From Mariniblastus sp. (lineage in GTDB: Bacteria; Planctomycetota; Planctomycetia; Pirellulales; Pirellulaceae): a stretch of 64,000 nt of DNA. Of this stretch, positions 38,516 through 41,198 are shown in pieces. The stretch spans positions 21,170 through 85,169 of the forward strand of contig JAKVBF010000014.1 of NCBI GenBank assembly GCA_022447555.1, read 5' to 3'. The translations under genes and the position numbers were made by a program. Position 1 is the stretch's first letter. Every line of letters begins with the position of its first letter. The notes beneath the pieces were generated by a model, which was given only the letters and a program-made list of their open reading frames with translations, made no database searches and was not told the origin of the DNA.

Positions 38516-39694
38516 TCAAGCCTCGGAATCCGCCGAGGCTAATTGCCGCTCAATGAGATGGGCAATATCCGAATCGTCAATCGCCTTTTTGGAATCTGCC
38601 AGCAATTTAAACTGCTTAAACAGTACGCGAATCTGTTCATCACTCAATTCAAAACCTAATTGTCGAGCCCGATCCGCTAACGCAGCTCGCCCACTGTGCT
38701 TGCCCATCACGAGATCGGTTTTACCGAAACCGACATCTTCGGGTCGCATGATTTCATAAGTGGTGGGCTCTTTTAACATCCCGTCCTGATGAATCCCTGC
38801 TTCATGAGCAAATGCGTTGCGTCCCACAATCGCCTTGTTACGTTGGACATCCAATCCAGTGATCCGTGAAACCAACTGGCTGGTGGGGACCAGCAACCGA
38901 CTGTTGATGCCCGTGTCACAGCTATAAAAATCAGAGCGTGTTCGCATCGCCATGACGACCTCTTCCAACGAGCAGTTCCCGGCACGCTCACCAATCCCAT
39001 TGATCGTGCATTCAATCTGCCCGGCCCCTTGTTCGATACCCGCAAGACTATTGGCCACCGCCAGTCCCAAATCGTTATGACAGTGCAGACTGAGAACCGC
39101 ATCACCTACGTTGGGGACACGATCCATCAACCCCTTGATCACAGCTCCCATATGAGCAGGCGTTGCATAACCGACGGTATCCGGAATATTGACCGTCGTC
39201 GCCCCGGCACCAATGACCGCCTCGACGACACGGCAGAGAAAATCCATCTCGGTACGCGCTGCGTCTTCCGTTGAAAATTCAACGTTGTCACAGTACCCCT
39301 TGGCACGCGCGACCCCCGCCACTGCGTTCTCGATGATCTCCTCGGGAGACATATTTAATTTAAACTCACGATGGATAGCACTGGTCGCGAGGAAGACATG
39401 GACTCGAGGTGACTCGGCCTGTTTCAAAGCATCCCAAGCCCGATCGATATCCTGATCATTACACCGGCATAAACCAGCGATTTCAGCCCCTTTGAAGTTG
39501 TTGGAAATTTCTTGCACCGCTTTGAAATCATCCGGAGAAGCAATGGGAAAACCCGCTTCGATCACGTCAACGCCCAAATCAATCAACGCCTGAGCGATTT
39601 GCATCTTTTCCTCGTGGTTCATACTCGCTCCCGGAGATTGCTCGCCATCTCGCAGGGTGGTATCGAATATCTTGATGATGCGTTTGTCGGACAT
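38516..39694 (-). CDS. leuA: 2-isopropylmalate synthase-like enzyme lacking the regulatory domain
   Basis: A 392-residue DRE-TIM metallolyase-type synthase. The metal site is seen in DTTLRDGEQSPGAS, SLHCHNDLGLAVANS and the HxH context; NGIGERAGNCSLEEVVMAM and AGIHQDGMLK are typical of LeuA. It should condense acetyl-CoA with 2-oxoisovalerate in leucine synthesis. Full-length enzymes are about 510-560 residues with a C-terminal allosteric domain; here the protein stops after the linker subdomain, and the Wza terminator lies immediately beyond, so the domain is absent rather than shifted out of frame. A homocitrate or citramalate role cannot be excluded. The ATG at 39694 gives MSDKRIIKIFD; the upstream in-frame extension is unlikely. 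Confidence 0.85.
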   Translation of the reverse strand: MSDKRIIKIFDTTLRDGEQSPGASMNHEEKMQIAQALIDLGVDVIEAGFPIASPDDFKAVQEISNNFKGAEIAGLCRCNDQDIDRAWDALKQAESPRVHVFLATSAIHREFKLNMSPEEIIENAVAGVARAKGYCDNVEFSTEDAARTEMDFLCRVVEAVIGAGATTVNIPDTVGYATPAHMGAVIKGLMDRVPNVGDAVLSLHCHNDLGLAVANSLAGIEQGAGQIECTINGIGERAGNCSLEEVVMAMRTRSDFYSCDTGINSRLLVPTSQLVSRITGLDVQRNKAIVGRNAFAHEAGIHQDGMLKEPTTYEIMRPEDVGFGKTDLVMGKHSGRAALADRARQLGFELSDEQIRVLFKQFKLLADSKKAIDDSDIAHLIERQLASADSEA

Positions 39695-39921
39695 AACGAA
39701 ACTCAGGAAAGATTGCAAACACTGAATAAAGTTTAATTCTATCGAACAACGGATGCAAAAGAAAAGGTGTTTAAGTAAAACAGCCCGCCAAAGGATACCC
39801 CAACAGCACAAGCACCTAGCAGTAGCCACGGATGGCCGTTACATTTTACCAACCGCGACAAACTGTCCCGCATGAGCGGTCAGTTGTTGACAGCCTAGGC
39901 TTCCCTTAGAAAATCTAAGAT

Positions 39922-39996
39922 GCCCCCTTCGTCTAGCGGCCTAGGACTCCGAATCTACTCGATTCGGCAACAGTGGTTCGAATCCACTAGGGGGTA
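39922..39996 (+). tRNA. tRNA-Glu-like gene with an abnormal anticodon arm
   Basis: The sequence folds into a cloverleaf: acceptor GCCCCCT with AGGGGGT (G-T first pair), D arm GTCT/GGAC, T arm AGTGG-TTCGAAT-CCACT, four-base variable loop CAAC and discriminator A; no CCA is encoded. U11-A24, U13-G22, A46 and lack of base 47 match tRNA-Glu. The anticodon arm (39949-39967) has 19 rather than 17 bases. It can be read as a 5-bp stem with a 9-nt loop, 6 bp with 7 nt (central triplet ACT), or 7 bp with a 5-nt loop (CCGAATC, TACTC, GATTCGG). No reading puts TTC or CTC in normal register. It may not decode codons. Confidence 0.72.
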
Positions 39997-40097: not shown

Positions 40098-41198
40098 ATG
40101 GCCCTTCGATACATGTCCCTTACTGAGATTGTTGCTATTAATCTTCAACTATCGGCGAGTGAATTTCTGACCGCCTCGGCAAACCAACCGATCGTCGATG
40201 TGCGTGCGCCGATCGAGTACACCGAAGGGCATATCCCGGGTGCCATCAACATCCCCTTACTGGATAATTCCCAGCGGGAGATCGTAGGAAAACTCTATCG
40301 AGAACAAGGGCGGGGCCTCGCCGTACAACGGGGCTTGCAGTTCGTTCGCAAGCGATTGCCAGAAATAAAAAAACAGGTGGAAGAAGTCATTGGCGATGAT
40401 CGGACCGGCGCAGACGAGCTTTTGGTACACTGCTGGCGAGGCGGTATGCGCAGTCAAAGTTTTGCTTGGTTGCTCGAGCAATTTGGCCGTCCCGCCCGTA
40501 TCTTAAAAGGTGGTTACAAAGCCTACCGCCGACATGTGCTCCATGCCTTTCAAAAGCCACTCAAATTAGTCGTCCTGAGCGGATTTACCGGAGCGGGGAA
40601 GACCCATCAATTGAAATGTTTGCGAGAACGGGGAGAGCAGGTCATTGATCTAGAGGGTCTGGCTAATCACCGTGGCTCGGCGTTTGGAGGGATTGGACTG
40701 CCTCCCCAGCCAACCGTCCAACAGTTTCAAAATGAAATGGCCCAGCTCATAGACAGCTTCGACTCTCGTCGGCGAATCTGGTTGGAAGACGAAAGCCAAA
40801 AAATTGGACGCGTCGTGATCGACAATCGCTTTGTCGAACAGATCCGACAAGCTCCGGCAATCTTTATCGATGTCTCACAAACGGTTCGCGCTGAAAATTT
40901 GGCCTTGGAATATGGTCCGCTTTCGGTTGATGCGTTACGATTATCGACACAGAAAATTGGCCGACGCTTTGGCTCCGAGAATGTCGCTAAGGCAATTGCA
41001 GCGCTGGATCGAGGCGACCTTCAAGCGTGTGCCACGATTCTTCTAGAATACTACGACAAGACCTATCGGGTTTCTCAAACACGGCAAAATCGCCCTCAAT
41101 CCTACCACTTGGCAACCGAAAGCCCCTTGGCTACCACGTTCACCGACCAGTTAATCCGGGCGGCCGATGAAACGCTTTGGCTGCACCCAAACTCGTGA
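40098..41198 (+). CDS. mnmH: tRNA 2-selenouridine synthase (MnmH/SelU/YbbB)
   Basis: A 366-residue enzyme that converts 2-thiouridine at position 34 of tRNA-Glu, -Gln and -Lys to geranylated and then selenated uridine using selenophosphate. Residues about 25-140 are a rhodanese domain with the active cysteine in LLVHCWRGGMRSQSF. A P-loop domain follows with VLSGFTGAGKTHQLK at about 157-171 and FGGIGLPPQPTVQQFQN. An ATG at 40113 is an alternative start; neither has a strong ribosome-binding site. It lies about 100 bp after the unusual tRNA gene. No selD gene is in the window. Confidence 0.93.
   Translation: MALRYMSLTEIVAINLQLSASEFLTASANQPIVDVRAPIEYTEGHIPGAINIPLLDNSQREIVGKLYREQGRGLAVQRGLQFVRKRLPEIKKQVEEVIGDDRTGADELLVHCWRGGMRSQSFAWLLEQFGRPARILKGGYKAYRRHVLHAFQKPLKLVVLSGFTGAGKTHQLKCLRERGEQVIDLEGLANHRGSAFGGIGLPPQPTVQQFQNEMAQLIDSFDSRRRIWLEDESQKIGRVVIDNRFVEQIRQAPAIFIDVSQTVRAENLALEYGPLSVDALRLSTQKIGRRFGSENVAKAIAALDRGDLQACATILLEYYDKTYRVSQTRQNRPQSYHLATESPLATTFTDQLIRAADETLWLHPNS

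What the first reader, a model, noticed from the sequence alone, without database searches (positions are those of the whole stretch)
39922..39996. tRNA-Glu-like gene whose anticodon arm cannot present a normal anticodon
The acceptor, D and T arms are canonical and carry tRNA-Glu body marks (U11-A24, U13-G22, A46, no base 47). The anticodon arm has 19 bases and forms a perfect 7-bp inverted repeat around a 5-nt loop (TACTC). Read as a 6-bp stem with a 7-nt loop, the central triplet is ACT with C at position 37, which does not match Glu. The perfect extended stem looks selected rather than decayed. It may be charged with Glu but not used at the ribosome, for instance as an amino-acid donor, or it may be a regulatory tRNA mimic or an odd decoder.
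Basis: partly seen in the sequence, partly recalled or inferred. Interest (0 to 1): 0.8.

Follow-up and report, generated by a model that had tools for sequence, protein, structure and literature searches.

The report
Glutamate tRNA with closed anticodon arm
A second glutamate tRNA found across a bacterial family keeps the parts that probably let it be loaded with glutamate but has repeatedly lost parts that a ribosome normally needs to read it, so it may feed glutamate into some job other than making proteins.

Summary
Window 39922-39996 is a tRNA-Glu body whose 19-nt anticodon arm folds as a 7-bp stem with a 5-nt loop. It is no sequencing error or lone pseudogene. Two congeners carry the same 19-nt arm at the same locus, and 20 of 28 genus genomes (its own included) have an orthologue. 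It belongs to a wider isoacceptor, "type A" (G1.U72), which is an ordinary tRNA-Glu(CUC) in most genera examined. Eight genera have copies with 8- or 9-nt loops, C37/G37, or no U33. In 74 distinct sequences from 96 hand-picked genomes U35 and C36 never change and stems stay paired, with many two-sided changes in the acceptor, anticodon and T stems. All 33 odd sequences can pair the first and last loop bases. Normal tRNA-Glu(UUC) never shows such arms (42 genes). Promoter boxes are conserved. Best reading: a transcribed Glu isoacceptor, probably charged by GluRS and largely withdrawn from translation. An off-ribosome user such as glutamyl-tRNA reductase is inference. Nothing was measured at the bench, and 8 of 28 genus genomes show no copy.

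The parts
39922..39996 (+). type-A tRNA-Glu-like gene (75 nt, no encoded CCA)
   Evidence: orthologues
39949..39955 (+). 5' arm of the 7-bp anticodon stem (CCGAATC)
39956..39960 (+). 5-nt apical loop TACTC; CTC at 39958-39960 is the retained Glu triplet (34-36, counted from the 3' side)
39961..39967 (+). 3' arm of the 7-bp anticodon stem (GATTCGG)
39887..39892 (+). -35 box TTGACA, identical in two congeners
39909..39914 (+). -10 box GAAAAT (CAAAAT in two congeners), 16-nt spacer, 7 nt before the tRNA in all three
38516..39694 (-). leuA (2-isopropylmalate synthase, name recalled; Pfam gives HMGL-like and HCS_D2), divergent and on the same contig within 5 kb in 19 of 20 genus copies
40098..41198 (+). 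mnmH (tRNA 2-selenouridine synthase, name recalled; Pfam gives Rhodanese only), neighbour in 3 of 20 genus copies in the flanks held

Best explanation
It is the orthologue, in this genus, of a second glutamate isoacceptor ('type A') of a Planctomycetes-like family. In most genera examined type A is an ordinary tRNA-Glu(CUC). In this genus and several others it has been withdrawn from normal decoding. Steps: (1) it is transcribed from its own sigma-70 type promoter (inferred from conserved boxes); (2) it folds as a normal cloverleaf body with an anticodon hairpin closed by at least one extra pair, in the window a 7-bp stem and 5-nt loop (folding and covariation; computed, not measured); (3) it is charged with Glu by the single GluRS, which can still meet the acceptor stem, D arm and U35-C36 (inferred); (4) the missing 7-nt U-turn loop, C/G37 and weakened T-stem pairs keep it from EF-Tu and the A site (inferred); (5) its Glu is passed to an off-ribosome user. 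Glutamyl-tRNA reductase (HemA) is the most plausible, about one in five by my estimate (a guess consistent with HemA presence only).
For: Orthologues in 20 of 28 genus genomes, none of the 20 with a canonical loop. 74 distinct type-A sequences from 96 genomes: base 35 is U and base 36 is C in 74 of 74. 'Odd' means not (7 nt, U33, A37); 33 sequences from 42 genomes: base 37 is C 16, G 11, A 6; base 33 is not U in 6; loop length 7 (18), 8 (10), 9 (5). On a 30-genome GluRS tree the fewest changes are 7 for loop length, 10 for base 37, 4 for base 33; 35 and 36 are the same in all 30. Odd set: anticodon stem 163 of 165 cells standard with 39 two-sided changes, T stem 164 of 165 with 52, first-last loop pair 33 of 33 with 8; 0 of 2000 shuffles reach any of these three (shuffles ignore relatedness). 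Control: normal tRNA-Glu(UUC), 46 loci that are 42 distinct genes, all 7-nt loops with U33, UUC, A37 (1 further normal gene, L067, escaped the pattern and is Glu(UUC) by ARAGORN). Three copies carry AUC, an Asp anticodon, on the Glu body. Weak pairs at 50-64 or 51-63 in 33 of 33 odd against 7 of 41 canonical-loop sequences. Promoter boxes conserved while spacers diverge. One GluRS match per genome at E <= 1e-60 in 30 of 30.
Against: No transcript, charging, EF-Tu or ribosome data. 8 of 28 genus genomes show no copy (some incomplete and the hit list was cut, but G020 is 95% complete), so it looks dispensable there. HemA is found in 7 of those 8 and in 18 of the 20 with a copy, so co-occurrence does not point to HemA. 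The T-stem / odd-loop association is not significant on independent pairs of the tree (3 against 0, 3 ties, p 0.25). GAG codon use in the loci held does not shift where copies are odd (24 against 40 genomes, p 0.77). Of eight RNAs folded, one odd copy (L076) does not give a cloverleaf as best structure and one (L238) uses a shifted 5-bp anticodon stem with a 7-nt loop. D-arm and T-loop invariance is partly built into the search patterns. U33 is kept in 27 of 33 odd sequences.
Confidence: 0.55

Rival explanations
1. It still decodes Glu codons, perhaps slowly or under some condition. The extra loop bases bulge on the 5' side and the 3' stack of 34-36 is kept, as an 8-nt-loop mitochondrial tRNA-Thr does.
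For: The Glu triplet is kept at 34-36 in 71 of 74 sequences (YUC) and U33 in 68 of 74. An enlarged 8-nt anticodon loop that reprograms CUN to Thr is known for yeast mt tRNA-Thr1 (PMC4267643, start of the abstract in the listing). In most genera examined type A is a plain Glu(CUC).
Against: C37 in 16 of 33 odd sequences, U33 lost in 6, AUC triplet in 3, the first-last loop pair able to close in 33 of 33. No change in GAG use.
Confidence: 0.22
2. It is a redundant tRNA under relaxed constraint, kept mainly because it is an attachment site for integrating elements or because decay is slow.
For: Integrase-like genes run convergently into the tRNA in 14 of 94 loci examined and lie just beside it in 2 more (two of these proteins checked with Pfam). 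tRNA-Glu(UUC) can read both Glu codons (general knowledge). 8 of 28 genus genomes show no copy.
Against: Stems are kept with many two-sided changes, also in copies with no integrase beside them in the flanks held. U35 and C36 never change. Promoter boxes are conserved. No integrase-like match was found at the window's own locus.
Confidence: 0.15
3. It is a cleavage-resistant backup or decoy against tRNA-cutting toxins or defence nucleases, with the anticodon loop altered as proposed for phage tRNAs.
For: Phage tRNAs with anticodon-loop mutations are proposed to evade anticodon nucleases (PMC10264068: start of the abstract, and passages). Some phage tRNA-Glu-like genes in IMG/VR also have 8-nt loops.
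Against: A backup must decode, which the arm argues against. I did not search for linked or resident anticodon nucleases, and cleavage was not tested.
Confidence: 0.06
4. It decodes another codon through the 6-bp / 7-nt register (ACU, Ser), as ARAGORN's call implies.
For: ARAGORN call; 6-bp anticodon stems exist in tRNA-Pyl and mt tRNA-Ser (PMC7609411, passages).
Against: The central triplet in that register is UUU in the two closest relatives. The body is tRNA-Glu, and Ser tRNAs have a long variable arm (general knowledge).
Confidence: 0.02

Closest known systems
Bacterial tRNA-Glu (UUC/CUC elongator)
   Same: acceptor, D arm with U11-A24 and U13.G22, A46, no base 47, T loop, [C/U]UC triplet
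   Different: anticodon arm of 18-19 nt or C/G37, loop closed by an extra pair, U33 sometimes lost, G1.U72 instead of G1-C72, weakened T stem
Staphylococcus aureus non-proteinogenic tRNA-Gly isoacceptors for cell-wall synthesis
   Same: a second isoacceptor beside a normal one; A49-U65 and a non-G-C 51-63 pair, as in the pairs read there as weak for EF-Tu (PMC4052509 passages; PMC4810233 passages)
   Different: amino acid Glu (inferred); G18-G19 are kept; the main change is in the anticodon arm; no known consumer
Yeast mitochondrial tRNA-Thr1 with 8-nt anticodon loop
   Same: natural enlarged anticodon loop (PMC4267643, start of abstract)
   Different: that tRNA decodes; here the loop can close by first-last pairing and base 37 is often C
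allo-tRNA / selC* tRNA-Cys / tRNA-Pyl (non-canonical tRNAs)
   Same: natural tRNAs with longer anticodon stems (PMC7609411 passages)
   Different: normal 7/5 acceptor branch and 4-nt variable loop here

Membership tests
canonical elongator tRNA-Glu | 7-nt anticodon loop with U33 and A37 | tested here: not met
   9-nt region closing to a 5-nt loop, A at 33, G37; 42 of 42 distinct normal genes parsed meet it
canonical elongator tRNA-Glu | Glu body marks and UUC/CUC triplet | tested here: met
   U11-A24, U13.G22, A46, no 47, CUC counted from the 3' side
tRNA pseudogene | loss of stem pairing and of orthologues | tested here: not met
   orthologues in 20 of 28 genus genomes; odd-set anticodon-stem cells 163 of 165 and T-stem cells 164 of 165 paired
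dedicated non-ribosomal donor tRNA (as S. aureus tRNA-Gly) | weak EF-Tu T-stem pairs | tested here: inconclusive
   A49-U65, U51-A63 in the window gene; 33 of 33 odd against 7 of 41 canonical-loop sequences weak at 50-64 or 51-63, but p 0.25 on independent pairs
dedicated non-ribosomal donor tRNA (as S. aureus tRNA-Gly) | G18-G19 replaced | tested here: not met
   GG kept (GG is also part of the search pattern)
dedicated non-ribosomal donor tRNA (as S. aureus tRNA-Gly) | charged and used by a non-ribosomal enzyme | not testable with these tools
   needs charging and enzyme assays
allo-tRNA / tRNA-Sec-like | acceptor branch split other than 7/5, long variable arm | tested here: not met
   7/5 with 4-nt variable loop
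lanthipeptide-type Glu-tRNA user | Lant_dehydr_N dehydratase in the genomes | tested here: not met
   0 of 43 genomes over the cut-off, one weak sub-threshold hit in G002; the 14 control genomes also gave 0, so sensitivity was not shown

The most novel reading that the evidence does not exclude
A whole bacterial family keeps a glutamate tRNA dedicated to non-ribosomal chemistry (most simply tetrapyrrole synthesis). Its anticodon arm is built to be read by GluRS but not by the ribosome, and this state has arisen several times from an ordinary tRNA-Glu(CUC).
Probability: 0.3. Interest if true: 0.9.

Novelty: new variant of a known kind. Interest (0 to 1): 0.72.

Why it matters
Cells must split Glu-tRNA between protein synthesis and tetrapyrrole synthesis, and normally the same tRNA pool serves both (general knowledge). 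A natural isoacceptor that keeps synthetase recognition but loses decoding would be a physical separation of the two pools and a test bed for which tRNA features serve GluRS, EF-Tu and the ribosome. It also shows that a standard tRNA finder mislabels such genes: ARAGORN reports Ser, Lys, Ile, Asp, Met or '???' for a number of the odd copies. The intermediate states found (canonical loop with weak T stem, C37, 8-nt and 9-nt loops) make the path testable.

Tried and rejected
Sequencing error: rejected, two other genomes have the same 19-nt arm at the same locus, and 8-nt loops occur in ten more genus genomes. Pseudogene: rejected on pairing statistics. Relic upstream of leuA in genomes without the gene: none found in G004, G009, G012, G020, G023; leuA was not found in the other three. 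Lanthipeptide dehydratase as consumer: 0 of 43 genomes over the cut-off. HemA co-occurrence: uninformative. Codon-usage footprint: none, in the loci held only. Integrase evasion as the reason for odd loops: not general, since integrase-like genes or fragments also meet odd-loop copies in five genus-g3 genomes. mnmH link: three genomes only. Literature: the three terms 'anticodon loop', 'tRNA-Glu', 'Planctomycetes' together gave 0 papers; searches also gave 0; one search gave five papers, of which I saw passages of one (PMC3927822) and titles and abstract starts of the other four. In some searches I saw listings, and then passages of PMC4810233, PMC7609411, PMC10264068 and PMC4052509. I found no description of this tRNA in these searches; absence from print is not shown beyond them.

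Flawed steps: searches used a pattern with the variable-loop spacing wrong, so they could only find tRNAs with an extra base in the T stem or variable loop; the viral scan was repeated with the right pattern but the genome-contig scan could not be. (phylum) used a pattern with one G too few that misses even the window's own gene, so its 0 of 89 says nothing. The 96 type-A genomes were hand-picked, with preference for odd copies and one or a few per genus; their frequencies are not prevalences. Two listed copies were dropped from the parse (G067, gene cut by a contig end; G014, added later). The lists were cut by the tool. The control had four genes twice; one search recounts it (59 loci given, 46 matched, 42 distinct genes; of the 13 without a match 12 are type-A copies and one, L067, is a normal gene missed by the pattern). 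The ARAGORN part printed nothing and was repeated with files.

Full report
What is there. The stretch 39922-39996 reads as a complete tRNA with a 7-bp acceptor (first pair G1.U72), 4-bp D stem, 19-nt anticodon arm, 4-nt variable loop and 5-bp T stem. ARAGORN reports tRNA-Ser(ACT). With the fast filters of a 64-kb search Rfam reported nothing; on the 501-base stretch it gave tRNA at 42.2 bits, covering the whole model. RNAfold gives a 7-bp anticodon stem with a 5-nt loop for the window gene; for its two closest relatives it gives the same stem with one more pair. The genome has a normal tRNA-Glu(UUC), L046.

Relatives. A DNA search of 60 relatives found matches in 47; some of these are the normal tRNA-Glu. 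A covariance model run on the 28 held genomes of the genus, with sequences fetched and read, gave an orthologue in 20. Three have a 9-nt loop region (window TCTACTCGA; G010 and G026 TCTTTTCGA), ten an 8-nt loop (TTTTTCGG in eight, TTTTTCGA in two), seven a 7-nt loop with C37 (CTTTCCG in six, CCCTCCG in one). None of the 20 has a canonical loop. In the 8 others (G004, G005, G008, G009, G012, G020, G021, G023) I saw no copy; the list was cut at about 43 bits. leuA is divergent on the same contig within 5 kb in 19 of the 20, and on another contig in G013. mnmH was found beside the tRNA only in the three 9-nt genomes, in flanks of 1.5-2.5 kb, some cut by contig ends.

Wider family. A pattern for the tRNA-Glu body with a free anticodon arm matched 141 of 241 family genomes, including some normal tRNA-Glu genes. 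I fetched 60 places and, through the covariance model on 22 chosen genomes, further copies in genera that the pattern had missed. The second isoacceptor, which I call type A, has the acceptor GCCCCC...GGGGGU in most copies, with G1.U72 in 68 of 74 distinct sequences. I call a loop canonical if it has 7 nt, U33 and A37. By the genus codes, the 96 genomes fall into 46 genera: canonical copies in 41 of them and odd ones in eight (g1, g3, g37, g75, g77, g78, g79, g85), three of these having both (my hand count). The commonest canonical loop is TTCTCAG, a plain Glu(CUC). Odd examples are CTTCTCAG and CTTTTCAG (8 nt; the CTTCTCAG copy that I folded gives 7 bp and 4 nt), CCATATCAG and CCATATCCG (9 nt, triplet AUC) and CCTTCCG (C33 and C37). 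With a pattern that demands an expanded arm and a G-G T stem, 8 of 396 genomes in 2 of 144 genera of the order matched; the g77, g79 and g85 copies do not fit that pattern. One type-A copy lies in a named record, 'Planctomycetales bacterium HKST-UBA30' (L128), which points to Planctomycetes. G027 and G074 are the most divergent members of the set and their inclusion is a judgement.

Constraint. Across 74 distinct type-A sequences from 96 genomes, 367 of 370 anticodon-stem cells and 369 of 370 T-stem cells are standard pairs, with 62 two-sided changes in each; acceptor 513 of 518 with 15; no shuffle of 2000 reaches these counts. The D stem hardly varies (295 of 296; its make-up is part of the search patterns) and says nothing. 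In the 33 odd sequences (42 genomes) the first and last loop bases form a standard pair in 33 of 33, with 8 two-sided changes (shuffles 0 of 2000). In the 41 canonical-loop sequences (54 genomes) the same test is not significant (38 of 41; 1398 of 2000 shuffles reach it). These shuffles do not allow for relatedness. U35 and C36 are invariant in 74 of 74; base 34 is C 53, U 18, A 3. The patterns fixed the D arm and parts of the T arm but not the anticodon arm. The normal tRNA-Glu(UUC), 42 distinct genes, has only CTTTCAC (39), TTTTCAC (2) and TTTTCAT (1) loops. A GluRS tree of 30 chosen genomes puts odd arms in two separated parts; the fewest changes are 7 for the odd state, 7 for loop length, 10 for base 37 and 4 for base 33. 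A LeuA tree of the genus places the 8-nt loop of G014 among 7-nt copies, apart from the other 8-nt copies.

Expression. TTGACA - 16 nt - (G/C)AAAAT - 7 nt - tRNA is shared by the window, G010 and G026 while the spacers differ. Nine of the ten 8-nt genus copies have TTGACC - 18 nt - TAAACT or TAAAAT further upstream; G014 does not. The scan finds the window's promoter with 10 of 12 matches (two promoter-like sites found where shuffles give 0.5 on average). This is sequence evidence, not a transcript.

How it may work. Glu charging is inferred: the GluRS search gave one match per genome in 30 of 30, with a second class of PF00749 protein beside it that I take to be GlnRS (26 of 28 genus genomes matched, names by score class and position), and the bases that GluRS is known to use (U35, C36, D-arm pairs, A46, missing 47; recalled) are kept. 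Withdrawal from translation is inferred from the closed loop, from C/G37, and from T-stem pairs. At 50-64 or 51-63, 33 of 33 odd sequences are weak (G.U, or not G51-C63) against 7 of 41 canonical-loop sequences, but on independent pairs of the tree the support is 3 to 0 with 3 ties, p 0.25. The EF-Tu reading of these pairs follows the account of S. aureus tRNA-Gly in PMC4052509 (passages). The consumer is unknown. HemA was found in 25 of 28 genus genomes: 18 of 20 with the gene and 7 of 8 without. Lanthipeptide dehydratases were found over the cut-off in 0 of 43. GAG usage, counted in long frames of the loci held, shows no shift in 24 odd against 40 canonical genomes (p 0.77).

Mobile elements. 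Of 94 type-A loci searched with two integrase proteins, 17 gave a match: in 14 the match runs into the tRNA, in 2 it ends within 150 bases of the tRNA's start, and in 1 (L158) it lies 2.2 kb away. Five of the 17 are odd-loop copies of genus g3. Pfam supports Phage_integrase for one of the two proteins and only a phage-integrase SAM-like domain for the other. Type A therefore looks like an attachment site in several genera, which could help to move or keep 3' halves. It does not explain the conserved stems or the window's locus, where no such gene was found.

Judgement. The most likely account is a Glu isoacceptor that left normal decoding while keeping synthetase recognition. What it is for is open.

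Noticed in passing
L118, L120-L127, L129-L131: Granulicella and related Acidobacteria records (12) carry a tRNA-Glu(CUC)-like gene with an 8-nt loop (mostly ACACTCAT, A at 33) and a T stem with an extra base on the 5' side; ARAGORN finds none of the 12. A possible independent case of the same thing, found only because of a mistaken pattern.
   Followed up: partly
L128:4867-4941: Type-A copy in Planctomycetales bacterium HKST-UBA30 with loop CTCTCCG and an extra base in the T stem.
   Followed up: partly
L073, L075, L077, L081, L082, L085: Dense arrays of 11 to 22 tRNA genes within 3-5 kb in several genus genomes, with their own divergent tRNA-Glu genes; they look like mobile tRNA arrays.
   Followed up: no
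L132, L135, L136, L137, L139: Phage contigs with tRNA-Glu-like genes that have 8-nt anticodon loops, in L132, L135 and L136 as closely spaced pairs.
   Followed up: no
L154:4030-5388, L160, L196:4006-5343: Integrase-like genes read into the 3' half of type-A tRNA-Glu; in L154 and L160 they end in a peptide with PPRGVEPL, and in L196 PPKGFEPL, which the antisense of the T arm encodes.
   Followed up: partly
L237, L239, L241: Three genus g85 copies also have one or two extra T in the D loop.
   Followed up: no
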